Program-made: the position numbers and the translations under genes
Shown: positions 5,584 to 23,373 of the stretch, in pieces
Numbering within the stretch: the stretch's first letter is position 1
Layout of the letters: every line of letters begins with the position of its first letter
IMG/VR virus record: IMGVR_UViG_3300020121_000056
Span: 1-23,709 of that record
Source of the DNA: a virus
DNA: 23,709 nucleotides
Direction: 5' to 3' (one strand)
The notes under the pieces: generated by a model
Seen by the model: the letters and a program-made list of their open reading frames with translations, nothing else
The model's database searches: none
What the model was told of the DNA's origin: nothing

Positions 5584-6105
5584 ATGCAGACCCTTCCAGC
5601 TACCCAACAGCAGGCAATGCCAGCTGGTCGCAGCGCTGCGCCTGCGATCGATCAGGGCAAGGAGGAAGATTATTACGACGTTACGCGCCTGCGTAGGCAG
5701 TGGAATGATTGGGCCTCGGCAAAGGATGCTGAAGGCCGCGAGATGGTCGAATCTCGCCATTACTACCACGGCGACCAATGGACTGATGCTGAGATTGCCG
5801 CTCTTCGGCGTCGGAAACAGCCTGTGGTTACGTCCAACCGGATAGTGCGCAAGATTGATGCCGTTGTTGGACTTGTCGAGCGGCTGAGGCAGGATCCAAA
5901 GGCATATGCTAGGACGCCGAAGCATGACGAGGGAGCTGAACTCGCAACCGCTACTCTTCGGTTTGTACTCGATAACAACGACTGGAAGTCTAAGTCGAGC
6001 CGTATCGCGCGGGCTGGTGGAATCGATGGCATTTCTGGAATTGAGTATGATCTCGTTCCAGGAGACGAAGGCGATCCTAGCCTCGAAATGCACATCGCCT
6101 ACTGA
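5584..6105 (+). CDS. Portal protein, N-terminal fragment before the TGA
   Basis: This is what standard translation would make: 173 aa. It starts with a polar segment, then YYDVTRLRRQWNDWASA and a YYHGDQWTDAEIAALRRR helix. These are followed by KQPVVTSNRIVRKIDAVVGL and VERLRQDPKAYARTP, the conserved N-terminal part of P22-like portals. ATG 5584 abuts the mini-ORF stop (TAAATG). The fragment ends inside the wing/stem core and cannot form a ring alone. Confidence 0.7.
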   Translation: MQTLPATQQQAMPAGRSAAPAIDQGKEEDYYDVTRLRRQWNDWASAKDAEGREMVESRHYYHGDQWTDAEIAALRRRKQPVVTSNRIVRKIDAVVGLVERLRQDPKAYARTPKHDEGAELATATLRFVLDNNDWKSKSSRIARAGGIDGISGIEYDLVPGDEGDPSLEMHIAY

Positions 6106-6204
6106 GACGGGTTTTTCTACGATCCCCGCTCCGTAGACGAGGGCTTCACGGACGCGCGCTATCTCGGCATAGCTAAGTGGGTCGATCTCGAGCAAGCCAA
6201 GGAG

Positions 6205-7587
6205 ATGTTCCCGAGCAAGGCTGACGATATCGACAGCCTGATGGAATCGGGCGCCGACCAAACGGCTGTTGTTGAAACCGACCGCTCCCGCAACTGGATC
6301 AACGTCAACGAAAAGAAGGTGCGTCTCTCTGATCATTGGTACATCCGTGGCGGCAAATGGCGCTGGTGCATGTATATCGGCAGCGTCATGCTCATGCAGG
6401 GCATTTCCCCTTTTATTGACGAGAAGGGCAAGACGTTCCCGCGCTATCGGATGTACTCTGCATCAGTTGACCATGATGGCGACCGCTACGGCTTCGTGCG
6501 AAACCTTAAAAGCCCCCAAGACGAGGTTAATCACCGCCGCTCCAAGGCGCTACATCTGCTCAATACCCGCCGCGTAGTGTCTGAGAAGGGCGCAGTTGAC
6601 GATATCGAGGTTGCACGTCGGGAATGGGCGAAGCCTGATGGCTGGGTTGAGACTAATCCCGGCTTGAAGATGGAGCCGGATCAGTCTGCCATTGCTGATT
6701 TCAAAGGCCAACTGGAAATGCTACAGGAGGCTAAGAACGAGATTGAGAATTTTGGTCCTAATCCGGCTTTGATCGGGCAAGGACTGGAAGATAGCTCAGG
6801 CCGCGCCATTCAGTTGTTGCAGCAGGCCGGAATCGCAGAACTTGGCCCGTATCTATCGGCATACAAGAACTGGAAGCTGCGAGTTTACCGCGACATCTGG
6901 AATATTATCCAACGCTATTGGACGGCGGAACGGTGGATTCGCGTCACCGACGATCAGAATGTTGCGCAGTTCTTCCAGATCAACAAGCAGGCAACCGACG
7001 AGTACGGCCGACCGGCCATTGTCAACGCGATCGGCTCGCTGGATGTGGATATCATCATCGACGAGGGCCCGGACGCTGTGAATATGCAGGGCGATAGCAT
7101 GATGGTCATGCAGTCGCTCGGCCCGCAGTTTGCGCAGAACTTCCCCGAGATCATGATCGAGCTCTCCCCGCTGCCCAACTCGGTCAAGAAGCCGATGCTG
7201 GATAAGATCAAGGCGAAGCAGGAAGCTCCGCCGCCGCCTGATCCCAAGGTGATGGCGCTCCAGGCCAAAGCGCAACTCGACGCGCAGAATGCCCAGCGCG
7301 AGGACCAGCGCGCCACCGCGCAGGCTCAGCAGGACATGGCTATCGAGGCCCGCAAGCAGCAGATGGCAGAGCAGCAGGCCGCCATGGATGCCCAGATGGA
7401 GCGCATGCGAGCGGCTAACGAGATTGAAATCCAGCGGATGAAGGCCGCGGCTGATATCCAAATCGAGCGCATCAAGGCAGCGAATAAGGCACGCCTCGAC
7501 CAGGAAGCGCATCAGAACAACATGGAGCTTGCGCGGGACAGAGCCGCACAGCAGGCCAAGCTAAAGCCGGTAAATGCTTCAGCTTAA
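6205..7587 (+). CDS. Portal protein, C-terminal fragment after the TGA
   Basis: ATG 6205 is the first in-frame ATG after the stop, but AAGGAG sits directly against it with no spacing, so independent initiation is doubtful; portal homology already begins at 6106. The fragment has the portal core (DHWYIRGGKWRWCMYIGSVM, RSKALHLLNTRRVVSEKG, NPALIGQGLEDSSGRAIQLL). After about residue 340 comes a long Gln/Ala/Met-rich coiled coil that matches the barrel-like C-terminal helix of P22 portals. It is 460 aa if started here. It overlaps the next gene by 14 nt. Confidence 0.6.
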   Translation: MFPSKADDIDSLMESGADQTAVVETDRSRNWINVNEKKVRLSDHWYIRGGKWRWCMYIGSVMLMQGISPFIDEKGKTFPRYRMYSASVDHDGDRYGFVRNLKSPQDEVNHRRSKALHLLNTRRVVSEKGAVDDIEVARREWAKPDGWVETNPGLKMEPDQSAIADFKGQLEMLQEAKNEIENFGPNPALIGQGLEDSSGRAIQLLQQAGIAELGPYLSAYKNWKLRVYRDIWNIIQRYWTAERWIRVTDDQNVAQFFQINKQATDEYGRPAIVNAIGSLDVDIIIDEGPDAVNMQGDSMMVMQSLGPQFAQNFPEIMIELSPLPNSVKKPMLDKIKAKQEAPPPPDPKVMALQAKAQLDAQNAQREDQRATAQAQQDMAIEARKQQMAEQQAAMDAQMERMRAANEIEIQRMKAAADIQIERIKAANKARLDQEAHQNNMELARDRAAQQAKLKPVNASA

Positions 7588-11350: not shown

Positions 11351-11689
11351 ATGTCCAAAACCCGCGCTGAGATCCAGAAGAAAGCCCTAGATATCCTTGT
11401 CGGAGGTGATGTCGGCGCGAGCATGTCGGATGAGGATGCTACCGCGCTCGATGGTTACATCGATAGCATGGTTGCCGAGATCAACGCGGATGGTATCGCC
11501 TATATTTCCGACCCCGATACTATGGACGATGAACTGTTCATTCCATTCAGCAAATTGGTTGCGAACGCCGCAGCTGAAGAGTTCGGCGGAAAGTCTGATG
11601 AGGAGTTTGCCAAGCAGACGCGTAACCGGATCAGGGTTTTGACCGCGCAAAAGCCCGGTTACGGCCCGCAGATCGTGGACTTTTTCTGA
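11351..11689 (+). CDS. P22 gp4-like head completion / portal accessory protein
   Basis: The 112-aa product is helical and begins with KTRAEIQKKALDILVGGDVG, continuing with MVAEINADGIAYISDPDTMD, FIPFSKLVANAAAEEFGGKS and an RIRVLTAQKPGYGPQIVDFF tail. The pattern 'A...L..l.....a..a..FG', with a basic C-terminal stretch, is seen in P22 gp4-type tail accessory factors, which bind the portal after packaging. Unlike P22 gp4 no muramidase function can be claimed. The gene lies between coat and gp10-like genes as expected. The stop overlaps the next ATG (TGATG). GTGAGGGCC upstream is the likely ribosome binding site. Confidence 0.6.
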   Translation: MSKTRAEIQKKALDILVGGDVGASMSDEDATALDGYIDSMVAEINADGIAYISDPDTMDDELFIPFSKLVANAAAEEFGGKSDEEFAKQTRNRIRVLTAQKPGYGPQIVDFF

Positions 11690-12180
11690 TGAAGCCGGAT
11701 GCTGAGCGTATTCGCGAGTTGCTAGCATATGATCCGCTGACTGGCATGTTCATTTGGCGCGTTTCACCCTCGCGCAATACGCCTGCTGGCTCTGTCGCAG
11801 GCGCAGACTGTGATGGATATCGCCTTATCAGAGTGGATGGCGGCAGATACAAGGCGCATCAGTTAGCTTGGCTGTATATGACAGGCGAATGGCCATCATG
11901 TCAGGTGGATCACAAGGATACTGATCGCTCCAATAATAGTTGGGAAAATCTTCGCCTCGCAACAACTAGCCAAAACAAAGCAAATATGGGCAAGCGCGCT
12001 GACAACACCAGCGGATATAAAGGCGTGCGTTGGTATCCTCAGACTAAGAGATGGGTGGCTCAAATCGGCTTCCAAGGGAGGTCCAAAACCATCGGCTATT
12101 TCCCAACTCCGGAAGACGCGCATGCTGCTTACTGTCAAGAAGCTAAGCGTTTGTTTGGAGAGTTCGCGAGATTTGGGTAA
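11689..12180 (+). CDS. HNH-AP2 homing-type endonuclease
   Basis: The 163-aa product has the free-standing HNH homing endonuclease layout. The N-terminal segment (about 9-66) reads LLAYDPLTGMFIWRVSPSRN then YKAHQLAWLYMTGEWP. The HNH motif (about 68-98) is QVDHKDTDRSNNSWENLRLA with catalytic His (VDH) and the structural Asn pair, followed by SQNKANMG. An AP2 DNA-binding domain (about 106-155) reads GYKGVRWYPQTKRWVAQIGF with a conserved aromatic YFPTPEDAHAAY. Such genes spread by cutting DNA lacking them. It sits exactly between gp4-like and gp10-like genes, with one-base overlaps at each end (TGATG and TAATG). It has no visible structural role and is probably a mobile passenger. Confidence 0.88.
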   Translation: MKPDAERIRELLAYDPLTGMFIWRVSPSRNTPAGSVAGADCDGYRLIRVDGGRYKAHQLAWLYMTGEWPSCQVDHKDTDRSNNSWENLRLATTSQNKANMGKRADNTSGYKGVRWYPQTKRWVAQIGFQGRSKTIGYFPTPEDAHAAYCQEAKRLFGEFARFG

Positions 12181-13625
12181 TGCCGCCTATTCATGTGCCT
12201 TTTCCATTATCCACATCTCCCGGAGCGAATTCCCAAGAGAGTGCGGGCCGGCTCATAAATTGCCTGGCCGAACCACTCGGTAAGGACATCGGGTCACAAA
12301 AAGGGTTTGTCCCTCCGGTCGTCGTCTGGCGCAAGTGTCCCGGACTTGCGCAGTTCTGCACCTCAACGCAGAGCGGTTTCCGCGGCGGATTGCTAGTCGG
12401 TAGCGCGCTCTACACTGCCTGGAGCGGGAAGGCGGCAACGTACACATCTGCTGGTGTTGAAGCGGTCCTAACGGGGACACTGAACGGCACTGAAAAGGTA
12501 TTCTGGGCGCGCAACAACAAGAGCCCGACGCCTGATGTTGTGTGCGTCGCTCCTGGTACTGGAGCGTTTTCGGTATCCTCGACCGCTGTTATCTCGTTTG
12601 CTGATCCAGATATCGGAACGCCCAACAGCGTCGGGTTTATGGATGGATATTTCATCTTCACCTATGGCGACGGTACAATCCAAGCCTCAGGCTTGAACGA
12701 TGTCACGATCGCAACGACGGACAAGACGAAGGAACAGGCCAAGACGGGCGGTTTGACGCGGGGGCTTCCGTTCAACGGGCAATACTACGTCTGGGGGCCT
12801 AACTTCGGTGCGGTCTACTCGGATACTGCGCAGCCGACAGGATTCCCATTTACGCGCTCCTATGTGATCCAGCGCGGTTTGCTAAGCCCGTATGCGGTTG
12901 CAGGTCATGAGGATGGTTTCGGATCTGCTCTTATCTGGGTTGCAGATGATAACTCAGTAGTGCAACACAACGGCACGCCGAACCCGTTGAAGATTTCTCC
13001 GCCTGATCTGGATCGCTTGATCGCTGCGGTAAGCGATAAGAGCACGTTGGAGGCATCTGTATACATCTCGCAGGGGCATCCGAAATGGGTGTTATCCTGC
13101 CCGGCGTTTACATGGGAGTTCGACCTCGGCAGCCAGAAATGGAACGAGCGCGCGAGCTACCAGCAGACGCGCTGGCGGGCAATCAGTGGCATCTCGGCTT
13201 TCGGCAAGTGGGTCACGGGCGACACGCAAGGCAACCGACTGCTGTATCTTAGCGAAACGTCATACGATGAAAACGGTAATCCGCTGATGTTTCAGCTTGA
13301 GAGTGGGCCCGTCAAGAACTTCCCGAACCGAACGAAGGTAGCGCGGGCAGATTTTGATTTCGTGGTTGGAGTTGGGCAGGCAACAGGGGCAGACCCGATC
13401 GCAACTGATCCCAGCGTTGGGATTTCGTGGTCGGACGATGGCGGGACTTCCTGGAGCCAGGAGTTCGTTCGCAAACTCGGTCGGCAGGCAACACCGCAGC
13501 GGATCACGATGCTGCGGACAGGAATGTCTGGGATGCAGGGGCGACGCTGGCGGCTCAAGGTTTCTGATCCTGTCTATGTGGCGTTCATGGGCGCAACGCA
13601 AGATGCACAGTTGAGAAACCACTGA
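12180..13625 (+). CDS. P22 gp10-like packaged-DNA stabilisation / tail accessory protein
   Basis: The 481-aa beta-rich product opens with PFPLSTSPGANSQESAGRLI followed by NCLAEPLG, the usual start of gp10-type proteins (a P-x-x-N.QE.. RLIN.yaE pattern). Later motifs include FRGGLLVGSALYTAWSGKAA, FMDGYFIFTYGDGTIQASGL, SALIWVADDNSVVQHNG and a C-terminal VGISWSDDGGTSWSQEFVRK segment. P22 gp10 forms a ring under gp4 that closes the portal and provides the platform for the tail needle and spikes. Length is close to P22 gp10 (472 aa). The start overlaps the HNH gene stop, and the stop overlaps the next start (TGATG). Confidence 0.8.
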   Translation: MPPIHVPFPLSTSPGANSQESAGRLINCLAEPLGKDIGSQKGFVPPVVVWRKCPGLAQFCTSTQSGFRGGLLVGSALYTAWSGKAATYTSAGVEAVLTGTLNGTEKVFWARNNKSPTPDVVCVAPGTGAFSVSSTAVISFADPDIGTPNSVGFMDGYFIFTYGDGTIQASGLNDVTIATTDKTKEQAKTGGLTRGLPFNGQYYVWGPNFGAVYSDTAQPTGFPFTRSYVIQRGLLSPYAVAGHEDGFGSALIWVADDNSVVQHNGTPNPLKISPPDLDRLIAAVSDKSTLEASVYISQGHPKWVLSCPAFTWEFDLGSQKWNERASYQQTRWRAISGISAFGKWVTGDTQGNRLLYLSETSYDENGNPLMFQLESGPVKNFPNRTKVARADFDFVVGVGQATGADPIATDPSVGISWSDDGGTSWSQEFVRKLGRQATPQRITMLRTGMSGMQGRRWRLKVSDPVYVAFMGATQDAQLRNH

Positions 13626-13822
13626 TGGCGAAGCCGCTGCCAAATCTCGACGTTCCCGTGATTGATCTCAAGACGGGATTCATGACGCAGAGTTGGTACG
13701 AATATTTTCAGTCCCGCAAAGGACTGGCGAACCTGCCTGATGTCTCAACGACCGCACCGACAAACGGTCAGGTGCTTATATACAACTCGACCACGAAGCT
13801 TTGGGTACCTGGAGCGAATTGA
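13625..13822 (+). CDS. Short tail-associated protein, 65 aa
   Basis: The product reads like a fibre or adaptor tip: LDVPVIDLKTGFMTQSWYEY, then LPDVSTTAPTNGQVLIYNST and TKLWVPGAN. The second half (an 'NGQVLxYNSxTxxWxPG' motif) is common in phage tail fibre and tail adaptor proteins. It occupies the slot where P22 has the tail needle gp26, but it is far too short and lacks the long coiled coil, so it is not a needle. It is coupled by TGATG overlaps at both ends. Confidence 0.65.
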   Translation: MAKPLPNLDVPVIDLKTGFMTQSWYEYFQSRKGLANLPDVSTTAPTNGQVLIYNSTTKLWVPGAN

Positions 13823-14493
13823 TGGCTGGTCTCTTCGACATTTTTTCTAATGACAGCGCTGAGCAGGCTGCTCGCGATCGAAATCAGGGCCTTCAGCAGG
13901 GCTACAACTCTCTGTCTGATCTATATGGTCAGGGTCGCAATGCAATCACGCAGGGATATGGACAGGCATCCAGCCTATATGCCCCTCTTGTCGCTTCGAC
14001 TGGAGCTGGCGCGAAAGCATACGGCGATGCGTCAGGCGCAAATGGCGTTACTGGCTTGCAGAACGCCATGGATACGTTCAAGAACAGCGGCCAATATGGT
14101 ACTTACGGGTTTTCGCTCGGCCAAGGGCTCCAGGCGCTTGATCGCACACATGCCGCCGCTGGTAACTTGGCGAGCGGTAATGCTGATGCTGATACACTCA
14201 ACTATGCCACAGGCCTCGCCGGCAAGACGTACTCTGATTATCTGAGTGGTCTTTCGCCTTATCTTGGCGCAAACTCGAATGCTGTTGCTGGTGCTGCGAA
14301 TGCCGCTACTGGTGGCGCAAACGCGTTGAACGCGAGCTATCAAGGGCAGGGCAACGCGGCGAACGCCAACTATACCGGGCAGGGGGCATCCAACGCTGCT
14401 GCCGACATGAACAATTATAACATTAGCCAGAACTTGTGGAACGGCATCGGTAAGGCCGTGAACCTCGGCGCTAGCCTGTTCGGTGGCTTCTGA
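13822..14493 (+). CDS. Probable ejection (DNA transfer) protein, gp7 position
   Basis: ATG 13822 overlaps the previous stop (TGATG). The 223-aa product begins MAGLFDIFSNDSAEQAARDR and is then rich in Ala, Gly, Asn, Ser and Tyr with many short repeats (YGQGRNAITQGYGQASSLY, GAANAATGGANALNASYQGQ, ANYTGQGASNAAADMNN), ending in an amphipathic GKAVNLGASLFGGF. Gly-Ala-rich N-termini of this kind are typical of small virion proteins ejected into the host envelope ahead of DNA. Position matches P22 gene 7. Direct evidence for ejection is lacking. Confidence 0.6.
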   Translation: MAGLFDIFSNDSAEQAARDRNQGLQQGYNSLSDLYGQGRNAITQGYGQASSLYAPLVASTGAGAKAYGDASGANGVTGLQNAMDTFKNSGQYGTYGFSLGQGLQALDRTHAAAGNLASGNADADTLNYATGLAGKTYSDYLSGLSPYLGANSNAVAGAANAATGGANALNASYQGQGNAANANYTGQGASNAAADMNNYNISQNLWNGIGKAVNLGASLFGGF

Positions 14494-16160
14494 TGGCCGA
14501 TATTGACGAGATCATTTCCGGAGCGCGGGGAAATACCCGCTATAGCTTCGATGCGATTGGAGATCCCGTCAAAGCGTTTCGCGATGCTCAGAAGCAGGCC
14601 GATGAAACCAACCTTCGGCGTGCTTTTAAGGATGGCGTTCCGACCGGCCCGGATGGTCAGCCTGACTTTGCGGCAATGTCGAAGATCCTTTTTCAGAAGG
14701 GTGGCCTGAGCGAAGGTGTTGCTGCCTCCAACCTTGGTATTCAGCGCGATCAATTGAAAGCCGGGCAAGACATTGCCGCCAAGATTGGGTCACTCGAAGG
14801 AGGCCAACCGGCGCAGCCATCTATTGTCAGTCCTCCGTCAGCAAATCGAACCGCAACGACGGCGGTAGCTCCTCCGCTCTCCCGCGGTGGTGCTCAGTCC
14901 GGCAGTCAGCCTGCTTCTCAGGGCGGGACAACAATCATGGGCATCTTGTCAGCCCAAGGCATCCCGAACGATCAACTAGGTCCCGCGGCAGCCTCGATTG
15001 CCCGGCAGATTGGTGTTGAAGACCCGAACGCGCCGATCAATGTGCAGGATCCTCAGGTTCGCAACGTACTAGTGCCGGCCATTCAGCAACTGAAGCGGAT
15101 GGGTATTGGTCAGGTTGTTCAGCAGCAGCCTCAGACCGCGCAGGCCGTACCACAGGCTCCGCAGCCACCACAGCAGATGGGACAGCAACCCAACCCGCAG
15201 CAGGATCAGGGAACGTTTGGAGCGCCTCCAGCGACGCCAACCCGTGGTGCTGTCCCGACTGGGATGGACCCTGAAATGCAGCGTAAGATCGCGATCTATA
15301 CTGCATATGCAAGCAATCCGGCCCTTCCAGAAGCGACGCGAAAGGTAATTCAGAGCCGGCTGGAAGCGATGCAGCGCGAGGCCGACCCGACTGGATCGAT
15401 GAAGGAATATGACCTTTACCGGCGACAGGGCGGCAATCTGCCCTTTAATGAATGGCAGGCCGACAACGAGCAGCGCAAGACCGCGGCGACCGAGGAAGCT
15501 AAGCTTGGCGCGCAGAAATATCAGAGCCTGGTCGAAGCCGGCACAAAAGCTCAGATGGAAATTCCGCAACTCGACTTGCTCAAAGAGCAGATGAACGATC
15601 CTAACTTCTTTTCGGGCGCTGGTGAAAAGTATAACCTGCTTTACAAGCGGCTTAAGAGCGCTGTTGGCATCGACCCGGATGCGGCTGTCCCGCAAGAATA
15701 TCTGCGTAAGGCGACGGCTGCCAACGTGCTTTCGTCTCTCGGAGCGCTCAAAGGTCTCGGTCAGATCCGCGTCGCCGAAATCAACATGGCGCGCGAGGCC
15801 GCAGCGTCACCTGAAAACTCGATCCCAGCGAACAAGCTCCTCGTTGAAATCTCCAAGCGAACGCATGAGCGCAACGCCCAGATCGCTGAAATGGCGCAGG
15901 AGTATAAGGACAAAAACGGTGTTCTTGATCCCGGCTTCGACAAGCAGGTAACAGCGTTCTATAAGAAGAACCCGCTATTCAACGATGCCGAAATCAAGGA
16001 CTGGCATAAGGTCATTGGCGAGCAGAAGCAGGCTTCGTCCGCTCCGAGCCAGCAGCGCTTTTCATCGCCCGCTGATGTGCATGCCGCAGTGGCAGCCGGA
16101 AAGCTCAAGTCGGGTGATAGCTTCGTCGATCCGACCGGCAAGACGCGGTACGTGCCCTGA
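14493..16160 (+). CDS. Probable ejection protein, gp20 position
   Basis: The 555-aa product has an N-terminal helical part (DEIISGARGNTRYSFDAIGD, VKAFRDAQKQADETNLRRAF), a low-complexity Gln/Pro/Ala region at about residues 205-260 (VVQQQPQTAQAVPQAPQPPQ), and a long helical, lysine-rich C-terminal half (TAATEEAKLGAQKYQSLVEA, RIAEMAQ-like helices). No enzyme motif is visible. With its neighbours it forms the three-gene block found between tail accessory and fibre genes in P22-like phages, whose products leave the capsid to form a channel across the periplasm. Starts and stops overlap as TGATG on both sides. Assignment is by order and composition. Confidence 0.55.
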   Translation: MADIDEIISGARGNTRYSFDAIGDPVKAFRDAQKQADETNLRRAFKDGVPTGPDGQPDFAAMSKILFQKGGLSEGVAASNLGIQRDQLKAGQDIAAKIGSLEGGQPAQPSIVSPPSANRTATTAVAPPLSRGGAQSGSQPASQGGTTIMGILSAQGIPNDQLGPAAASIARQIGVEDPNAPINVQDPQVRNVLVPAIQQLKRMGIGQVVQQQPQTAQAVPQAPQPPQQMGQQPNPQQDQGTFGAPPATPTRGAVPTGMDPEMQRKIAIYTAYASNPALPEATRKVIQSRLEAMQREADPTGSMKEYDLYRRQGGNLPFNEWQADNEQRKTAATEEAKLGAQKYQSLVEAGTKAQMEIPQLDLLKEQMNDPNFFSGAGEKYNLLYKRLKSAVGIDPDAAVPQEYLRKATAANVLSSLGALKGLGQIRVAEINMAREAAASPENSIPANKLLVEISKRTHERNAQIAEMAQEYKDKNGVLDPGFDKQVTAFYKKNPLFNDAEIKDWHKVIGEQKQASSAPSQQRFSSPADVHAAVAAGKLKSGDSFVDPTGKTRYVP

Positions 16161-18181
16161 TGCCCGTTGAACCCGTCATCACATTCCGGGATCAACCCGG
16201 CGGTAGCTGGGATGCCTTCCCAGATGCCCCGCCGAAGGCCGATAGCTGGGACGCATTTCCGGATAAACCGACGACGGACTATACTGGCGTAGCAAAACAG
16301 GCTGGCGTTGGTGTCGCTAAGGGAGCGATCGGGCTCGGCGGCATCGTCGGAGACCTTCAACAGATCGCCAAGAAGGTCGGCAGCTATCTGCCTGACATCA
16401 AGACCGATCCGGAGTCCGAAAAGTACGCTCGCAAATATGGCCGAATGGGCGATGTTATGTCGGTCGGCCAGCCACCAGAATTCCCGACCTCGCACGACAT
16501 CCAAGGCCAAGTCGAGAAGGTTACGGGAGAGTTTCGCAAGCCGCAGAACCAGACCGAGGCCGATGCCGAAACAGTGGGTGAGTTTCTGCCGGCGGCGCTC
16601 GCTGGGCCCGGCAGTCTCGCGCGCAAGGTCGTCACGCAGGATGCTATCCCAGCGGCTGCATCCATCGTCGCCGGCCGCTATAGCGATCAGAACCCCTACG
16701 TAAAGGCCTTGGCCGGCTTTATAGCAGGAGGCACTGGCGCGGCTCTATCTGGCCCCAACACGGCCGAAAAGCTCCTGAGGGATAAAATCCCGGCCTCTGT
16801 GACTGAGCAGGACGTGACCCGTGCCGGCCAGTTGATTGAACACGCACAGACCCGTGGCGTTACGCTGACATGGCCGGAAGCCTTGTCTCGCGTCACCGGC
16901 CAGCCCGTTTTGACCGATACCCAGCGGATCCTTGAAAGCCACGGTCAGACCAGGCCTCAGATGCAGGAGCTGTTCTCGGAGCGGCCGGCGCAGGTTGAAC
17001 AAGCGGCTCGGAATGAATTCGATCAGATCGGCAACCATCCGGCCTATCCCTCCACAATCGGGCCTCAGGCTGGAGAAGCTGCAAACGAAACGCTAACTGG
17101 TGTCCGTCAAACCATCAATAACGCCGCTGAACCATATTATCAGAATGCGGCTAACGTGCTTCTCACGCCGGCTGAAATGAGCCACGTCCGGGCTATTCCA
17201 GGATGGACGCAGGCCCGCGATGCGGTGCGTAATAATCCTCAATTGAATTGGCGGGTGGCAAACCTCCCTGATCATAGCGTTGGTTTCCTGAACGAGGTCA
17301 AAAAGCAGTTCGACCAGGCTGCGGAGAACGCGGCTTCCAAGTTCAACCCCAGCCGCAATCATCAGGTTCAGGCTTCCAACGAAATGGCGGCTTCGGCCGT
17401 CAAACAGGTCGGCGAGGCGAAGTCTGCGGATTACCAGATCGCACTCGAGATCGGCCGACAGGGCAGACAGCAGTTCCTGGAGCCTCTGCTTCAGGGGCCA
17501 CTTGGTAAGCTCGCCAAGAAGGACATCACTACTCAAAAGGCCATTTCGGCCTTATTCCCTGAGAACCCTGTTCCTGGAACGGCTGGCGAAATTTCGGATG
17601 CGGTGTCAGCTCTGGTTCAGCGCCGTCCTGCCGCTGCTGAGCAGTTGGTTCGCGCTCACGTCGAAATGGTGTTCAACCAAGCGGCGCGAGATCTTCAGGG
17701 CGGCGCCAACCAGTTCGCGGGCGCCAAGTTCGCCGCTAAGCTAGCTGGTGGAGTTCAGCAGCGCGAGAACCTTAGGGCTGCTATCGAAGCCCTCCCGAAT
17801 GGGCAAGCACGCTGGGAGGGCTTTAATCACCTTCTGGATATCATGGCCGCAACCGGGACGCGGCAGCCAAAGGGATCATTGACCGCCTTCAACGCGCTAG
17901 AGGTCCAGTCAATGTCGACGGGCGGCCTTCAGGAGTTGGCGGCGAAGAGCCTCTCTCCCGGTAAGTGGATGAGCTTCGCCAACGATGCCTTCAAGTCGTG
18001 GTCGCTCGGACGAAACCTCGATCAGATCGCTCGCATCATCACGGACCCACGTTCGGGGGATGCCTTGAGACAGATTGTTCGTATCCCACCGGGCTCCGAC
18101 CGTGCGCTTGTGATGGCTGGCCGCCTGATCGCGCTCGGCTCGGCTGTGACGACCGAACAGAGAACCAAGACCGCTAAGTAG
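16160..18181 (+). CDS. Probable large ejection / internal virion protein, gp16 position
   Basis: The 673-aa product has a repeated 'SWDAFPD' motif at residues 13-39 (GGSWDAFPDAPPKADSWDAF). Glycine-rich hydrophobic stretches follow (VGVAKGAIGLGGIVGDLQQI and ALAGFIAGGTGAALSG), which could contact membranes, and then a long helical Ala/Gln-rich body. No lytic transglycosylase or peptidase signature is present. It is the last and largest of the three putative ejection genes. WDAFP-type N-terminal motifs are frequent in internal virion proteins of alphaproteobacterial podoviruses. The last 273 nt are overlapped by a minus-strand frame. Stop TAG. Confidence 0.55.
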   Translation: MPVEPVITFRDQPGGSWDAFPDAPPKADSWDAFPDKPTTDYTGVAKQAGVGVAKGAIGLGGIVGDLQQIAKKVGSYLPDIKTDPESEKYARKYGRMGDVMSVGQPPEFPTSHDIQGQVEKVTGEFRKPQNQTEADAETVGEFLPAALAGPGSLARKVVTQDAIPAAASIVAGRYSDQNPYVKALAGFIAGGTGAALSGPNTAEKLLRDKIPASVTEQDVTRAGQLIEHAQTRGVTLTWPEALSRVTGQPVLTDTQRILESHGQTRPQMQELFSERPAQVEQAARNEFDQIGNHPAYPSTIGPQAGEAANETLTGVRQTINNAAEPYYQNAANVLLTPAEMSHVRAIPGWTQARDAVRNNPQLNWRVANLPDHSVGFLNEVKKQFDQAAENAASKFNPSRNHQVQASNEMAASAVKQVGEAKSADYQIALEIGRQGRQQFLEPLLQGPLGKLAKKDITTQKAISALFPENPVPGTAGEISDAVSALVQRRPAAAEQLVRAHVEMVFNQAARDLQGGANQFAGAKFAAKLAGGVQQRENLRAAIEALPNGQARWEGFNHLLDIMAATGTRQPKGSLTAFNALEVQSMSTGGLQELAAKSLSPGKWMSFANDAFKSWSLGRNLDQIARIITDPRSGDALRQIVRIPPGSDRALVMAGRLIALGSAVTTEQRTKTAK

Positions 18182-18310
18182 CAGTGTGGCGAAGAACGCC
18201 GCGCCGAGTCCAAGGACACCGACAGCGTAAGGGTTGTCAGTCCATTCGTATCTGATGTTGCCGCACATCACCGCGGCTATAATCGACAACTGGAAGAGCT
18301 TCCACATCAT
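17909..18310 (-). CDS. Minus-strand two-TM membrane protein (copy 1)
   Basis: Reading leftward from ATG 18310 (or the adjacent ATG 18307), the product begins MMWKLFQLSIIAAVMCGNIR, a first TM, then YEWTDNPYAVGVLGLGAAFF and ATLLLSGLGSLF, a second TM. The first 43 codons fill the only gap (18182-18308) between two plus-strand genes. From 18181 down to 17909 the frame runs antisense to the ejection gene, and that part (about 90 aa) looks like shadow sequence, so the real C-terminus is uncertain. GAGGCAGAGGCG upstream is a possible ribosome binding site. The start overlaps that of the divergent fibre gene. It resembles the minus-strand protein at 19308-19514 (NI..Y....NPY....FF). Membrane location is solid; function is not known. 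Confidence 0.55.
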   Translation of the reverse strand: MMWKLFQLSIIAAVMCGNIRYEWTDNPYAVGVLGLGAAFFATLLLSGLGSLFGRHSRAERDQAASHHKRTVGARWDTNNLSQGIPRTWVRDDASDLIEVSSERPRLEGIVGEAHPLTGREALRRQLLKAARRH

Positions 18311-19313
18311 GTTGAAACGCCTCTGCCTCGCCCTTGCGGGGCTTTTTGCATTTGTCTCGGTAGCCAGTGGCGCGGGGACTGTTCCTGGCTTTTCGCTGAC
18401 GCCGCAATTTGACCTTTCCGGAAAGGTCGCGCCGGGTTGCAAACTCTACATTATTCAGGCGGGAACGACCAGTACCCCGCAAAATGCCTACCAGGACAGC
18501 GGGCTTACCCTTCTTCAGCCCAACCCGATGACCTGCGATGCAGGGGGGAGGCTAAGCCAATTCTTCGTCGCTGACGGACTGATCAAGCTCAGGTTAACGG
18601 ACAAGAACGGCGTTCAGCTTTTTGTCGGTGATAATCTCCTGGTTGTCGGCCCCAGCTCTGGCGGGGGTGGAGGTGGCGGGACGGTAGATCCAACCACCAT
18701 TGCCGCAACGGGAGACGTGAAGGTTTCCTATGGAACTTCTATCCTGTCGGGATGGGTCAGGGCAAATGGAAGGACGATCGGATCAGCGACGTCAGGGGCT
18801 ACCGAGCGGGCTAACGCGGACACGTCTGCTCTCTTTGTCTATCTGTGGGGGGCCGATGCTAACCTTGCAGTGAGTGGAGGACGAGGCGCGTCAGCAGCGG
18901 CTGATTTCGCGGCCAACAAGACTATTGCTCTTCCGGATTGGCGTGGGCGTTCCATTGCCGGTCTCGATGATATGGGAAATAGTGCGGCGGGGCGGCTTAC
19001 TTCGACGTATTTTGGAACATCGGCGACGGTTCTTGGAGCTGCGGGCGGCACAGAAAGTCGGACTCTGACTGCCGCTCAACTGCCCTCAAACATTCCGTTC
19101 ACAGATCCTGGGCATACACACACAATCACTGCTCGACTTGGTGCCTCAACAACGTTCGGAACTATCGCAGCGGGTGGAAGCGCGGATAACGGCGCTTACG
19201 CTGGAATGGGAGCATCGACGGCGACGACTGGTATCACCATCAATCCAAGCGGCGGATCGGCGCACGCAACCGTTTCTCCAAGGATGCTTGCAACCATTTA
19301 TCTGAAGCTATGA
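18309..19313 (+). CDS. Tail fibre with signal-like N-terminus and tail-collar-like domain
   Basis: ATG 18309 is preceded by GGAAGAG. The 334-aa product begins with a signal-peptide-like segment (basic MLKR, then a hydrophobic core ending VASGAG at about residue 22). A beta domain follows (PGFSLTPQFDLSGKVAPGCK, IQAGTTSTPQNAYQDSGLTL), then a seven-Gly linker at about residue 118. The last part is collar-like: SILSGWVRANGRTIGSATSG, ALPDWRGRSIAGLDDMGN, SRTLTAAQLPSNIPF, a GHTHTI HxH motif and the end SPRMLATIYLKL. That order (W.R..G..LPD.RGR...G.D.MG.....LT..QLP) is the phage tail-collar/fibre-tip pattern, a likely receptor-binding part. Similar proteins occur in rhizobial phages. A signal peptide is odd for a virion protein, and its coding DNA forms an intrinsic terminator. 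Confidence 0.7.
   Translation: MLKRLCLALAGLFAFVSVASGAGTVPGFSLTPQFDLSGKVAPGCKLYIIQAGTTSTPQNAYQDSGLTLLQPNPMTCDAGGRLSQFFVADGLIKLRLTDKNGVQLFVGDNLLVVGPSSGGGGGGGTVDPTTIAATGDVKVSYGTSILSGWVRANGRTIGSATSGATERANADTSALFVYLWGADANLAVSGGRGASAAADFAANKTIALPDWRGRSIAGLDDMGNSAAGRLTSTYFGTSATVLGAAGGTESRTLTAAQLPSNIPFTDPGHTHTITARLGASTTFGTIAAGGSADNGAYAGMGASTATTGITINPSGGSAHATVSPRMLATIYLKL
18325..18347 (+). terminator. Intrinsic-terminator sequence inside the fibre signal-peptide codons
   Basis: GCCTCGC (18325-18331) pairs with GCGGGGC (18336-18342) over 7 bp with one G-U, loop CCTT, then TTTTT (18343-18347). It starts at nt 17 of the coding region and is read as LALAGLF. It would terminate untranslated RNA; translating ribosomes would disrupt it. 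Confidence 0.65.
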
Positions 19314-19514
19314 CCAATCCTTACCATAGCTTCTTCGCATCTTGCTATGCGCCTGATTGATGAAAAATAGCTCAACGATCCGCCCAAAGAAGTAGCCGAT
19401 CATTACTGCGATCAGGCAAGCGACATAGGGATTCAAAAGGTCAAAGTAGATATTTACGGCGGCTATAGAAAACGTCGTAAGTATCATAATAAAATTCCGA
19501 ATTAACGAAACCAT
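19308..19514 (-). CDS. Minus-strand two-TM membrane protein (copy 2)
   Basis: The 68-aa product starts at ATG 19514, with GGAG eight bases upstream, and ends in TAG at 19308-19310, converging with and overlapping the fibre stop by 6 nt. It has two TM segments: IRNFIMILTTFSIAAVNIYF (about 5-24) and NPYVACLIAVMIGYFFGRIV (about 28-47), then a short basic tail (INQAHSKMRRSYGKDWS). It fills an otherwise empty 249-nt gap and has its own promoter-like sequence (19534-19563). Base composition is clearly more AT-rich than its neighbours, suggesting recent acquisition. Topology and the NI...NPY...FF pattern match the minus-strand gene at 18310. Candidates: superinfection exclusion or lysogenic conversion protein. 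Confidence 0.7.
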   Translation of the reverse strand: MVSLIRNFIMILTTFSIAAVNIYFDLLNPYVACLIAVMIGYFFGRIVELFFINQAHSKMRRSYGKDWS

Positions 19515-19533
19515 CGTGTGTGCTCCGAGCTAA

Positions 19534-19563
19534 ACTATACCACCACAAGGTGAATCATATCAA
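19534..19563 (-). promoter_or_regulatory. Sigma70-type promoter for the minus-strand membrane gene
   Basis: Read on the minus strand, TTGATA (19563-19558) is followed by an 18-bp spacer and TATAGT (19539-19534). Each box matches five of six consensus positions. A start near 19527 would leave a short 5' leader containing the GGAG site before ATG 19514. The -35 box overlaps the start codon of the divergent plus-strand gene at 19563. Confidence 0.6.
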
Positions 19564-19904
19564 TGTCGATTACCGTAAGTTCCACGGCGACGAACAATTC
19601 TGACTGGAAGACTCAATTCCAGTTCAATGACGCCGACACTGGTGATTTGATCGATTTCACAGGAGCCACGATCGAGATCGACGTTAAGGATTTCGATGGG
19701 TGCCGACGTATCCAGGCTTCAACGGGGAATGGCCTGATCACCATCCAGAGAACAGGTATCTTTGAACTGGATGTTCCTGCTACGACGATGGAATGCCTTT
19801 GCCCCGGAACCTATCAGGTCGGAGGTGTCTACTCGCTCAACGGTGAAACGATCTCCCTATTTACCGGCTCGCTTGCGATCATCTCCGGAGTTGCGCGGCT
19901 GTGA
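19563..19904 (+). CDS. Small beta-sandwich-like tail protein, 113 aa
   Basis: ATG 19563 follows AAGGTGAATCATATCA. The product is a beta-rich domain: ITVSSTATNNSDWKTQFQFN, DADTGDLIDFTGATIEIDVK, GNGLITIQRTGIFELDVPAT, CPGTYQVGGVYSLNGETISL and a final FTGSLAIISGVARL. This order (W...F.F.D..TG..IDLTGA.I...V, then PGTY) is seen in small phage tail or baseplate proteins with an Ig-like fold similar to the BppU N-terminus. It overlaps the next gene as GTGA. It probably connects or decorates the tail fibres. Confidence 0.6.
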   Translation: MSITVSSTATNNSDWKTQFQFNDADTGDLIDFTGATIEIDVKDFDGCRRIQASTGNGLITIQRTGIFELDVPATTMECLCPGTYQVGGVYSLNGETISLFTGSLAIISGVARL

Positions 19905-20458
19905 CCATCCCTGTCTTGAAGATCAAGATTCTACCGGTCCCCAAGATCAAGGGAAAGATGGATGTCCGCTTTCCTGCGAACGTTGCAGTCGATGAATTCC
20001 TGACGGTCGTTAAAGCAAACGGTATCTATACTTTCGGCATAGATTATACAAAGCTTGATCATAGCGCATTCGTAGACCCTGCTAACACGTATGTTGCAGT
20101 TCTCGACGCAAGTTCAGCCAGCTATAAGATCACGACTTTATCGGTGCTAATTGCAGGGTCTACCGGCATTGTCCAGACCTTCACGGCTGGGGGCTCCGAA
20201 GCTATCGGCGCGAATACTGGCATTGCCGTAGTAAATCAGACTGTAGGCGCAGCCAAAACGCTGACCTTGCCGCTATCTTCCGTAAAGACCTGCCCGGTTC
20301 TTGTCAGCGACTTCAAAGGCGATGCAGGGACAAACAACATCACAATCAATTTGTCAGGCTCTGACAAATTTCCAGGCGGTCTGACGAGTTGGACAATAGC
20401 AGCCGATACAGGAAGCGTCTTCCTAAGGCCAGTGAGCGGGTTAGGGTACGTCCTCTGA
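19901..20458 (+). CDS. Tail-associated beta-rich protein, 185 aa
   Basis: The start is GTG 19901, overlapping the preceding TGA (GTGA). Residues 1-30 are Lys/Val/Pro-rich (TIPVLKIKILPVPKIKGKMD). Then follow VDEFLTVVKANGIYTFGIDY, TYVAVLDASSASYKITTLSV, an ANTGIAVVNQTVGAAKTLTL strand pair, and NNITINLSGSDKF with a C-terminal beta turn region. The 'I.VVN...AA.T.TLP.....g..v.v.D..G.a..n.ItI' pattern is a recurrent beta-helix-like module of phage tail fibres and spikes. It is co-translated with the fibre gene that follows (TGATG). Confidence 0.6.
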   Translation: MTIPVLKIKILPVPKIKGKMDVRFPANVAVDEFLTVVKANGIYTFGIDYTKLDHSAFVDPANTYVAVLDASSASYKITTLSVLIAGSTGIVQTFTAGGSEAIGANTGIAVVNQTVGAAKTLTLPLSSVKTCPVLVSDFKGDAGTNNITINLSGSDKFPGGLTSWTIAADTGSVFLRPVSGLGYVL

Positions 20459-21837
20459 TGAAATCTCTCCATAAGCTTTCCGCGCTCGCTCTGGCGAGCT
20501 TTTTTTATTTTTTTTCCACGCTGGCACAAAATCCCGGAGCCGTTACAAACCATGCACTAGCTGTTGGAAAGGGGCCTGGCGTGCAGGGCTATGGCTCTGT
20601 CCTGCTCGGAAACACGCAAATCGCGGTCGGCCAGACCGGCGCAGATCCTCAGGCGAAGACTGTTTCAGGCGACGCCACGCTGGCGAATACCGGCGCTCTG
20701 ACGCTCGCGGCGGTAAATTCTAATGTCGGCAGCTTTGGGTCTGCTACGAGCTGCGTTTCCTTCACGACGAATGGGAAGGGGCTTATCACTGCGGCGTCTG
20801 CCACGACATGCACGCCGGCCATAGGAAGTATTACCGGCCTCGGGACGGGAGTCTCAACGGCGCTGGGTGTCAATGTAGGAACCGCTGGTTCATTCATCGT
20901 GAATGGCGGCGCGCTAGGCACTCCTGCATCGGGAACGCTGACCAACGCTACTGGTTTGCCGATCGCAACTGGCATCTCAGGCCTTGGGACCGGCGTTGCA
21001 ACGTTCTTGACTACGCCGAGCAGTGCAAATCTGCGAGCTGCGCTAACTGATGAGGTCGGTACAGGAGCGGCATATTTCGTCGGTGGCGCGCTTGGAACGC
21101 CTGCATCTGCAACCCTGACCAATGCGACAGGCCTTCCTCTCTCTGGCTTGAATACTCAGGCAGCATGGTCGTTCGTGGTCAACAACACGTCGGGAGTTGC
21201 TTCCCCGACTGCGGTTGATATCGGGTCTTTTACCGCTAAAGCATCTCCGGCCGGAACGGATCTGATTGTCATATCCGACCAAGCAGCATCTGGAGCGCTG
21301 AAGCGCGCAACGATATCCTCTATTGCATCGGCCGGGTCTGTGGCGTCGATCGCGGGGAATACGGGTGCATTTACGCTGAGCCACGGCATCACGAATAGCG
21401 CGAATGATATCCAACTCTCTCTCAATAGCGCGATCATTTCCACGCAGCCGAGCAACCCTGCCGGAACAACGTCAGCAACTCCAGTGATGATGGGGCTTGG
21501 CGTTACCACGTGCCGCATCACGCCAACATACTCAACGCGAGTTGAATTTGAAATCTACGGTGACATTACCAACAGCACATCCGGTACGGTTACGATCCGA
21601 TACGCTTTTGGGACTGGTTCAGGCCCAGCCAATGGAGCTGCGGCCACAGGCACGCTGTCTGGCTCTTCCCTTGCTCCGTCACTCGCGAGCGTTTCGGATG
21701 TCAAGCCATTCAAAATAGGCAGCATCGTGCAGAGCCTGACAGCCGGAACGACCTATTGGTTCGATCTAGAGATCGGGACAAATGCGGGTACTGCGAACGC
21801 CTTGGCGCTGACATGCAACGCTAAGGAAGTGATGTAA
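20458..21837 (+). CDS. Tail fibre protein with signal-like N-terminus and repeats
   Basis: ATG 20458 overlaps the preceding stop (TGATG). The 459-aa product begins with a hydrophobic leader (MKSLHKLSALALASFFYFFS, then TLAQ). A beta-repeat body follows: GNTQIAVGQTGADPQAKTVS, two copies of a GALGTPAS.TLTNATGLP unit (about residues 151-168 and 210-227), GTDLIVISDQAASGALKRAT, and a C-terminal domain (GTTSATPVMMGLG to the end). GTPASGTLTNATGLP is a familiar repeat of phage fibre and spike proteins. The same reading frame upstream (20389) is only antecedent-gene sequence. The leader's coding DNA contains a strong intrinsic terminator. It probably acts in host recognition together with the 18309 fibre. 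Confidence 0.7.
   Translation: MKSLHKLSALALASFFYFFSTLAQNPGAVTNHALAVGKGPGVQGYGSVLLGNTQIAVGQTGADPQAKTVSGDATLANTGALTLAAVNSNVGSFGSATSCVSFTTNGKGLITAASATTCTPAIGSITGLGTGVSTALGVNVGTAGSFIVNGGALGTPASGTLTNATGLPIATGISGLGTGVATFLTTPSSANLRAALTDEVGTGAAYFVGGALGTPASATLTNATGLPLSGLNTQAAWSFVVNNTSGVASPTAVDIGSFTAKASPAGTDLIVISDQAASGALKRATISSIASAGSVASIAGNTGAFTLSHGITNSANDIQLSLNSAIISTQPSNPAGTTSATPVMMGLGVTTCRITPTYSTRVEFEIYGDITNSTSGTVTIRYAFGTGSGPANGAAATGTLSGSSLAPSLASVSDVKPFKIGSIVQSLTAGTTYWFDLEIGTNAGTANALALTCNAKEVM
20484..20515 (+). terminator. Strong intrinsic terminator inside the second fibre leader
   Basis: GCTCGC (20484-20489), loop TCTG and GCGAGC (20494-20499) are followed by TTTTTTTATTTTTTTT (20500-20515). It begins at nt 27 of the coding region and is read as ALASFFYFF. 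Both the 6-bp GC stem and the 15 T residues are textbook features. The T tracts could also promote polymerase slippage. Confidence 0.75.
20905..21137 (+). repeat. Diverged direct repeat in the fibre gene
   Basis: Bases 20905-20960 and 21082-21137 are diverged copies of a 56-nt unit, 177 nt (59 codons) apart, both encoding GALGTPAS.TLTNATGLP. Differences are mostly silent or conservative, so the repeat is kept at protein level. It is a normal fibre-shaft unit and a site where recombination could change fibre length. Confidence 0.7.
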
Positions 21838-22628
21838 TGGCCTTCATTAACACGCTATATAATCTTTGGCCCAATGGGGACCAGAAGATCAGCGGACTCC
21901 GCGATGGCATCGCAGCAACTGCGCCGGCCGTCTTCGAAAAGTATAAGATAAACACTCCGCTTTTGGTTTCCCACGTCATGGCCCAGATCAGCCATGAATG
22001 CGGGGCGGGGCATGATGTTGTTGAAAGCCTCAACTATAGCGCTGAGCGTATGACGGAAGTTTGGCCCGGCAGGTTCCCTGATATCGCCGCAGCGGCTCCA
22101 TATGCACATAACGAACGTGCTCTTGGGATCAAGACCTACGGAGGCCGGATGGGAAATCGGCCAAATACCGACGACGGGTACACCTATCGCGGCCGTGGCG
22201 GTTCTCAGGTGACCGGGCGAGATGGATACGTCAGGCTTGAGAAGGCTACGGGTCTGCCTGTCCTCGATAATCCAGATCTGGTGCTAGATCCTAAAAACTT
22301 CATGCTTTGTGCGGTAGCTGATTTCGTCGCCTGCGGCTGCCTTCCTTTCGCGTTGCAAGACGATATTTCCGGCGTCTCGGCCATGCTCAACGTTGGTCAT
22401 CTTGTCACGGATACCCGGAAAATTGTCGGATATTCCGAGCGTGTTGATTGGCTGAGGCGATGGAAGTCCGCGCTGGGTAGTGGGCCTATTGATTTCCGTG
22501 TTCCGTTTGCGCCACTCGACCCACCGCCAAAATCGGCGCCACAAGTCGCAGTAAACACCGCTCCAGCGCAACCCGCTCGGAGCGGTTTCTTTTCCAGCCT
22601 CATTTCAATCTTTAAACGAAAGGCATGA
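21837..22628 (+). CDS. Endolysin, GH19 chitinase-like muramidase
   Basis: The 263-aa product matches phage GH19 lysins: LLVSHVMAQISHECGAGHDV with a candidate catalytic Glu54 (HEC motif) and a second conserved Glu63. Then come ESLNYSAERMTEVWPGRFP, IKTYGGRMGNRPNTDDGYTY and the RGRGGSQVTGRDGY loop. The enzyme cleaves peptidoglycan at lysis. The usual catalytic domain of about 200 residues is complete; residues 218-263 form a Pro/Ala-rich tail ending in a hydrophobic/basic FFSSLISIFKRKA. There is no N-terminal signal, so a holin is needed. The start overlaps the fibre stop (TAATG), and the stop overlaps the next ATG (ATGA). Three small membrane genes follow, making a lysis cassette. Confidence 0.85.
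   Translation: MAFINTLYNLWPNGDQKISGLRDGIAATAPAVFEKYKINTPLLVSHVMAQISHECGAGHDVVESLNYSAERMTEVWPGRFPDIAAAAPYAHNERALGIKTYGGRMGNRPNTDDGYTYRGRGGSQVTGRDGYVRLEKATGLPVLDNPDLVLDPKNFMLCAVADFVACGCLPFALQDDISGVSAMLNVGHLVTDTRKIVGYSERVDWLRRWKSALGSGPIDFRVPFAPLDPPPKSAPQVAVNTAPAQPARSGFFSSLISIFKRKA
22573..22593 (+). terminator. Weak terminator-like hairpin near the endolysin 3' end
   Basis: CCGCT (22573-22577), loop CGG and AGCGG (22581-22585) are followed by TTTCTTTT. The short stem makes it weaker than the others. It lies 36 nt before the endolysin stop and could lower expression of the downstream lysis genes. Confidence 0.35.
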
Positions 22629-22789
22629 CTATGTGGACGGCATTTGATTTGACTATTTGCGCAATCAGCTTTGGATCCGGCGGCGCCTTTGTTTGGTTCT
22701 GCAAGGACTGGATTCAGAAAATGGTATTGGGGGCAAATGCCCTATCAGCAAAACTGCACGCAAAGGCTGATGCCTTGCGGAGGTCTTAA
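22625..22789 (+). CDS. Small one-TM lysis-cassette protein, 54 aa
   Basis: ATG 22625 overlaps the endolysin stop (ATGA); ATG 22631 is a two-codon shorter alternative. The product has one hydrophobic segment (WTAFDLTICAISFGSGGAFV) followed by WFCKDWIQKM and a helical basic tail (LSAKLHAKADALRRS). Its place between endolysin and holin suggests an accessory holin, antiholin or spanin-like protein. No lipobox is present, so it is not an outer-membrane spanin. No family is recognised. Confidence 0.6.
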   Translation: MTMWTAFDLTICAISFGSGGAFVWFCKDWIQKMVLGANALSAKLHAKADALRRS

Positions 22790-22791
22790 TC

Positions 22792-23373
22792 ATGGATTGG
22801 AGCACGGTCGGCGCACTCGTTGGTCAGGCTGCCCCTACGATTGGCGGCCTGCTCGGCGGCCTTATTCCATTTCCTGGGGGAGCTATTCTCGGCCAGGTGG
22901 CGGGGAAGGTTCTCGCAGAAGCTCTTGGCGTGCCTCCTACGCCAGCGGCAGTTGCTGCTGCCGTTCAGACTGGAGACCCTGCGACCGTACAAGCAGCTCT
23001 GACTGAGGCAGAAGCCAAGATGAATGCCGAGGTCGATAAGCTGAAGGCTGAGCTGGCAGACGTTCAGGACGCGCGGGCGACAACGGTTAAGTATGTGACT
23101 TCGGGTTCATCCCTATCATTTGGCGCGGTCGTCGTCTCGATCGTAGTTCTGATTGGCTTCTGCGGTATTTCGTTTCTGGCAATGAAGCCTGATCTTGCTG
23201 GCGTCGATAAGAGCGTCACTCTCTTCTTGCTCGGTGCATGGTCTGGTTTCGCCGGCAGCGTAATCACGTTCTGGATCGGTTCGTCGGCTGGGTCTGCTGT
23301 GAAGACTGATCAGATCGCTCAAATGGCAACGACAGCCGCGAACGTGTCCGCGAAAGCGGCATCTAAGAGATAA
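22792..23373 (+). CDS. Holin, GTA-type 3-TM family
   Basis: ATG 22792 has a strong GGAGG nine bases upstream. The 193-aa product has a Gly/Pro-rich N-terminal hydrophobic segment (APTIGGLLGGLIPFPGGAIL), an LAEALGVPPTPAAVAAAVQT stretch, a charged helix (EAKMNAEVDKLKAELADVQD), and two clear TMs (SFGAVVVSIVVLIGFCGISF; a second from VTLFLLGAWSGFAGSVITFW). This order is that of the 3-TM holins of gene-transfer agents and alphaproteobacterial phages. Holins open the inner membrane so that endolysin can reach the cell wall. The family call is good, the holin role is inferred from neighbourhood. Confidence 0.72.
   Translation: MDWSTVGALVGQAAPTIGGLLGGLIPFPGGAILGQVAGKVLAEALGVPPTPAAVAAAVQTGDPATVQAALTEAEAKMNAEVDKLKAELADVQDARATTVKYVTSGSSLSFGAVVVSIVVLIGFCGISFLAMKPDLAGVDKSVTLFLLGAWSGFAGSVITFWIGSSAGSAVKTDQIAQMATTAANVSAKAASKR

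What the first reader, a model, noticed from the sequence alone, without database searches (positions are those of the whole stretch)
17909..19514. Paired minus-strand two-TM membrane proteins flank the fibre gene
In a region otherwise entirely on the plus strand, two minus-strand frames fill the only gaps around the fibre gene (starts 18310 and 19514). Both are two-TM proteins with the same pattern: short N-terminus, TM, an NI...NPY turn, TM, FF. They look like diverged copies. Opposite orientation next to host-range genes is typical of moron genes expressed from a prophage, and small membrane proteins of this shape include superinfection-exclusion factors. A fibre gene bracketed by two membrane genes could move as a host-range plus exclusion cassette.
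Basis: inference. Interest (0 to 1): 0.7.

Follow-up and report, generated by a model that had tools for sequence, protein, structure and literature searches.

The report
Antisense membrane genes beside phage injection gene

Summary
ORF A (17909-18307, minus, 132 aa) and ORF B (19308-19514, minus, 68 aa) each have two hydrophobic segments, and profiles of A's relatives rank B above every other frame outside A's own site; 0 of 400 pattern-preserving shuffles match it. A is a real gene: in its non-overlapping part substitutions fall 7/3/24 by codon position, dN/dS about 0.05-0.14. It sits antisense at the same site in 28 of 31 records carrying the same putative ejection-protein gene. It overlaps that gene by 153-408 nt, and the gene's synonymous divergence drops about twofold over the overlap, ending near the antisense stop in three clades: evidence of dual coding. 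B is a window-specific, AT-rich insertion with a near-consensus promoter, inside a segment exchanged together with the fibre tip. Gene order matches P22, where sieA sits antisense in this slot; seven relatives' records carry an integrase. There is no sequence similarity to SieA or to any library family. Best reading: SieA-like superinfection-exclusion proteins acting at DNA injection (about 55%; untested). The 'one cassette' idea holds for B with the fibre tip, not for A.

The parts
17909..18307 (-). ORF A: 132-aa protein, two-helix membrane hairpin (residues 2-55) plus hydrophilic tail
   Evidence: family members in 28 of 31 records; codon-position and dN/dS test; hairpin model
18182..18307 (-). 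part of ORF A that overlaps no other gene (codons 1-42); conserved turn NIxYxWTPNPY
   Evidence: substitutions 7/3/24 by codon position, p = 1.7e-5; invariant residues
17909..18181 (-). tail of ORF A, exactly antisense to the last 90 codons and stop of the gp16-position gene; probable dual-coding stretch
   Evidence: four-fold synonymous divergence of the plus gene 0.255 inside versus 0.546 outside
19308..19514 (-). ORF B: 68-aa two-segment membrane protein, divergent relative of A
   Evidence: profile hit; GC 41% versus 56%; gap absent in relatives
19534..19563 (-). promoter-like site of ORF B, TTGATA-18-TATAGT with TG before the second hexamer
   Evidence: 10 of 12 matches; a consensus match only
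18309..19313 (+). fibre gene; N-terminal two thirds conserved, tip variable
   Evidence: PHROG 8763 tail protein, E = 1.4e-53; alignment
18992..19568 (.). exchanged segment: fibre tip plus ORF B
   Evidence: DNA homology to L004, L005, L008, L010 stops at 18991 and resumes at 19569
16160..18181 (+). 673-aa protein in the position of P22 gene 16; putative ejection protein
   Evidence: gene order only; no profile match to P22 gp16
14493..16160 (+). 555-aa protein in the position of P22 gene 20
   Evidence: gene order only; the gene in this position in Rhizobium phage RHph_N65 is annotated 'putative injection protein'; no match to P22 gp20
13801..14493 (+). 230-aa DNA-ejection protein of the P22 gp7 kind
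   Evidence: PHROG 598 'DNA ejection', E = 1.5e-5
12180..13625 (+). head closure protein of the P22 gp10 kind
   Evidence: PHROG 578 Hc3, E = 4.7e-71

Best explanation
A and B are small inner-membrane proteins made from the strand opposite to the late genes, most likely in the lysogen, that stop related short-tailed phages from injecting their DNA: superinfection exclusion that works like P22 SieA. Shown here: A is a conserved protein-coding gene at a fixed antisense site beside the gp16-position gene; in the window's clade its tail is probably dual-coded with that gene's 3' end; B is a divergent relative that was inserted together with a fibre tip. Inferred: membrane topology (both ends cytoplasmic, the NIxYxWTPNPY turn periplasmic, from charge distribution), expression in the prophage, and the function. 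Proposed steps: the hairpin sits in the inner membrane, its conserved turn meets the conduit that ejected virion proteins build through the periplasm and inner membrane, and the conduit fails to form or open. Keeping the gene beside, and partly inside, the gene of its likely target keeps the two co-inherited.
For: Coding selection. Same antisense site in 28 of 31 records plus five more divergent phages. Gene order equals P22 around sieA, with gp10-type and gp7-type genes recognised. sieA genes examined all lie between 16 and 9, in three types only about 25% identical, so position outlives sequence (PMC10883804). [quoted passage not shown] escape changes map to C-terminal regions of gp16 and gp20. 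Temperate group: integrases in 7 of 13 records and a spontaneously produced B. elkanii podophage with the gene. The slot holds antisense two-segment ORFs in 29 of 62 cases versus 16 of 374 other junctions, with several unrelated sequence types. B: promoter-like site, low GC, insertion.
Against: No exclusion, expression or localisation data. No similarity to SieA or to any PADLOC, Pfam, PHROG or NCBIfam family. The 555- and 673-aa proteins do not align with P22 gp20 and gp16, so 'ejection protein' rests on gene order. SieA has three predicted segments, A has two. No sigma-70-type promoter was found upstream of A. Two relatives' records over 41 kb show no integrase or resolvase.
Confidence: 0.55

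Rival explanations
1. Lysogenic-conversion membrane proteins with another purpose (stress tolerance, envelope change, host fitness) that merely use a permissive antisense slot beside the fibre.
For: Antisense placement and integrases fit any lysogen gene. The USDA 76 member has a weak match to the AciT ciprofloxacin-tolerance family (18 bits versus a cut-off of 100).
Against: Such genes need not be tied to the 3' end of one virion gene; here the site is held across very divergent phages and the frames overlap.
Confidence: 0.22
2. A regulatory role: the minus-strand transcript, rather than or besides the protein, lowers expression of the gp16-position gene and fibre in the prophage.
For: The overlap is antisense to the 3' end of the gp16-position gene, and A starts at the fibre start codon in the window's clade. 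Synonymous constraint over the overlap could also come from an RNA element.
Against: Selection on the protein in the non-overlapping part and change points near each clade's own antisense stop point to protein coding. B overlaps only the last bases of the fibre gene.
Confidence: 0.1
3. A holin, antiholin or other lysis or virion-assembly helper.
For: Small two-segment membrane proteins are common in lysis cassettes (general knowledge).
Against: The endolysin and the neighbouring membrane-protein genes lie together on the plus strand at 21837-23373; a lysis gene opposite to the late operon would be unusual.
Confidence: 0.07
4. Chance open frames, not genes.
For: The overlap is in the exactly antisense phase, in which stops are rare. 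B has no relatives.
Against: A's non-overlapping codons show coding selection and 28 of 31 records keep it. B is found by A's profile, has promoter-like and ribosome-site-like sequences and fills a gap absent in relatives.
Confidence: 0.03

Closest known systems
SieA of Salmonella phage P22 (types A, B, C)
   Same: Antisense small membrane-protein gene directly after gene 16 and before the receptor-binding tail gene, in a temperate short-tailed phage with the same order of head closure and ejection genes.
   Different: No sequence or profile similarity; 162-164 aa with three predicted segments versus a two-segment hairpin; P22 sieA lies 22 nt after gene 16 whereas A overlaps its neighbour by 273 nt; exclusion by A or B untested.
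HK97 gp15 and other small inner-membrane exclusion proteins of temperate phages (from general knowledge; cited in PMC10883804)
   Same: Small prophage-encoded inner-membrane proteins thought to stop DNA entry.
   Different: Long-tailed phage with a different target; no sequence comparison was made here.
Overlapping exclusion genes olg1/sie1 and gene 10 of Pseudomonas phage Fc02 (PMC9936078)
   Same: Exclusion genes that overlap each other on opposite strands.
   Different: They lie beside the repressor, do not overlap a virion gene; no sequence comparison was made here.

Membership tests
P22 SieA | Position between the gene-16 homologue and the receptor-binding tail gene | tested here: met
   Met by gene order; the neighbour is not a recognisable gp16 homologue by sequence.
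P22 SieA | Opposite strand to the late genes | tested here: met
   Window and relatives; P22.
P22 SieA | Sequence similarity to SieA | tested here: not met
   hhalign probability 0.1% with P22 SieA; types B and C were not at hand.
P22 SieA | About 162 aa with three predicted membrane segments | tested here: not met
   A has two segments and 132 aa, B two segments and 68 aa.
P22 SieA | Blocks DNA injection of related phages from the lysogen | not testable with these tools
   Needs infection experiments.
Moron (prophage-expressed insertion gene) | Sits between genes that are adjacent in relatives | tested here: met
   B: gap of 2 nt in L004 and L005, homology resumes at 19569. A: neighbours abut in L060, RHph_N65 and MW202691.
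Moron (prophage-expressed insertion gene) | Base composition unlike the surroundings | tested here: met
   B 41% GC versus 56%, lowest 0.2% of 207-nt windows; A's intergenic part is 56%, so not met for A.
Moron (prophage-expressed insertion gene) | Own promoter | tested here: inconclusive
   B: near-consensus site. A: no sigma-70-type site found; other promoter types not covered.
Moron (prophage-expressed insertion gene) | Own terminator | tested here: not met
   No terminator-like site just after the stop of A or B on the minus strand; the two minus-strand sites near them lie inside the ORFs.
Moron (prophage-expressed insertion gene) | Expressed in the lysogen | not testable with these tools
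   No RNA data available.

The most novel reading that the evidence does not exclude
A widespread, undescribed class of injection-blocking proteins of temperate short-tailed phages whose tail is translated from the strand opposite to the C-terminal part of the very ejection protein they act against. Target and blocker are then locked in one stretch of DNA: a mutation that changes one can change the other, which would keep each phage lineage's exclusion specificity matched to itself.
Probability: 0.22. Interest if true: 0.85.

Novelty: new variant of a known kind. Interest (0 to 1): 0.62.

Why it matters
[quoted passage not shown] A recurring antisense slot, filled by several unrelated small membrane-protein types in mostly metagenomic podoviruses, would be a ready list of new exclusion proteins, testable in Bradyrhizobium, where one prophage with the gene is already in culture. 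Annotation misses the gene because it overlaps a virion gene. The synonymous constraint over the overlap is a good candidate case of antisense dual coding in phages.

Tried and rejected
Relatives of B: none in the phage records or viral contigs, and none beside related fibre tips. Profile similarity of the 555- and 673-aa proteins to P22 gp20 and gp16: none. Structure of the 673-aa protein: too poor to compare (pLDDT 48), so no fold search was made. Tail length as evidence of coding: rejected, because the exactly antisense phase is poor in stops; the synonymous-site test was used instead. Similarity of the L053 and L058 slot proteins to the full-length A profile: not counted, since the tail part of that profile mirrors the conserved plus-strand gene. 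Recombination as the cause of low synonymous divergence in the overlap: disfavoured, because both flanks keep normal divergence (A codons 1-42: 0.48; fibre N-terminus: 0.57). Clade III shows no constraint (0.478 versus 0.518) and clade IV only weak support, so dual coding is not shown for all members.

Full report
What was checked. The window is a 23.7-kb virus record. Both minus-strand frames exist. The fibre gene most likely starts at ATG 18309: in relatives such as L004 that is the first start of the frame. That leaves gaps of 127 and 249 nt, which A and B fill. Relatives have one ATG where the window has two, so A probably starts at 18307.

A is a gene. Relatives were found in ten other viral contigs, then more, and by way of the gp16-position gene in 36 loci. 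In the 42 codons that overlap no other gene, five sequences vary at 7, 3 and 24 sites by codon position (p = 1.7e-5), and dN/dS in the minus frame is about 0.05-0.14, while the other two minus frames look non-coding. Invariant residues across ten members include W2, Q6, I9, A11-A12-V13-M14-C15, N17-I18, Y20, T23, N25 and Y27, that is, the first helix and the turn. Many members have a purine-rich ribosome-site candidate.

Location. Among 31 records with the gp16-position gene and its downstream end held (the window included), 28 carry A antisense at its 3' end with 153-408 nt of overlap (some records are near-identical). Five more divergent phages keep the site with 57-83 nt of overlap, among them the B. 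elkanii prophage ppUSDA76Be-2, where the gene is unannotated. Where it is absent, the genes abut (L060, RHph_N65, MW202691) or the slot holds other hydrophobic antisense ORFs (L053, L058). In loci fetched by the fibre tip, many of them with a different upstream gene, the same slot often holds unrelated antisense hydrophobic ORFs. A crude count gives 29 of 62 slots versus 16 of 374 other junctions with an antisense ORF of two hydrophobic segments; it misses some, including the window's own A because of the chosen fibre start.

Dual coding. The overlap is in the exactly antisense codon phase, so an open frame alone means little. Four-fold synonymous divergence of the plus gene was therefore compared inside and outside the overlap. 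Clade I (the window's): 0.255 versus 0.546; best change point 84 codons from the stop, antisense ORF ends at 90. Clade II: 0.281 versus 0.569; 67 versus 52. Clade V (two sequences): 0.312 versus 0.623; 60 versus 61. None of about 500 rotations reaches these values. Clade VI is weaker (0.507 versus 0.638), IV weak, III negative. The flanks are not homogenised. The simplest reading is that A's tail is translated and selected in the window's clade; an RNA element is not excluded.

B. It is the best match to A's profile outside the slot, and 0 of 400 shuffles reach its hhalign score. No other relative is known. It is AT-rich (41% GC) and has a TTGATA-18-TATAGT site with TG before it and GGAG before its start. 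DNA homology to L004, L005, L008 and L010 stops at 18991 inside the fibre and resumes at 19569 at the next gene. So fibre tip and B were exchanged as one segment, while A belongs to the backbone. Antisense ORFs with one hydrophobic segment after the fibre recur in L064 and L065.

What it resembles. The window has a head closure gene of the P22 gp10 kind (PHROG 578) and a DNA-ejection gene of the gp7 kind (PHROG 598), then two large genes in the places of 20 and 16, then A antisense, then the fibre. P22 has 10, 26, 14, 7, 20, 16, sieA antisense, mnt-arc-ant, 9. [quoted passage not shown] the gp16 escape changes G532W and P546S lie 63-77 residues from the end of a 609-residue protein; every sieA examined in detail sits between 16 and 9, in three barely similar types (PMC10883804). 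A lies against the last 90 codons of the gp16-position gene. That is suggestive, not proof, since the proteins do not align.

Lifestyle. Seven of 13 relatives' records have a tyrosine integrase, and ppUSDA76Be-2 is a podophage spontaneously produced by its host (PMC10127595). Two records over 41 kb gave no integrase or resolvase.

Topology. Mean net charge over the family is +0.6 before the first helix, -0.3 in the turn and +2.9 in the start of the tail; B has +1, -1 and +2. By the positive-inside rule both ends would be cytoplasmic and the turn periplasmic.

Verdict. Observation confirmed. Interpretation partly supported: related antisense membrane genes at an exclusion-gene site, function inferred from position. 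Not a member of the SieA family (sequence and segment number fail); it may work like SieA.

Noticed in passing
window 5584-7587 (+): The portal-like gene is open over 667 codons except for one in-frame TGA at 6103-6105; nonsense mutation, assembly error or recoding not resolved.
   Followed up: partly
window 18309-18380, 20458-20540; L003, L005, L035, L049: Fibre and tail-like proteins begin with signal-peptide-like stretches (for example MLKRLCLALAGLFAFVSVASGAG), while the corresponding fibres of other relatives start directly at MAGTIP.
   Followed up: no
window 11689-12180 (+); L046 about 7055: HNH/AP2-homing-endonuclease-like genes (own reading of the sequence): one between structural genes in the window, one in the A-B fibre slot of L046.
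   Followed up: no
L053 6936-7439 (-): A 167-aa antisense ORF in the slot with what look like four hydrophobic segments, as if a hairpin were doubled.
   Followed up: no
L063, L065, L066, L072, L077, L083, L084, slot upstream of the fibre: A second, unrelated antisense small membrane type with a WWPWN-like turn recurs in the same slot; no family search was made.
   Followed up: partly
L064 3352-3573 (-), L065 3367-3507 (-): Antisense ORFs with one hydrophobic segment fill unusual gaps just after the fibre, so a fibre bracketed by two antisense membrane ORFs recurs with different sequences.
   Followed up: partly
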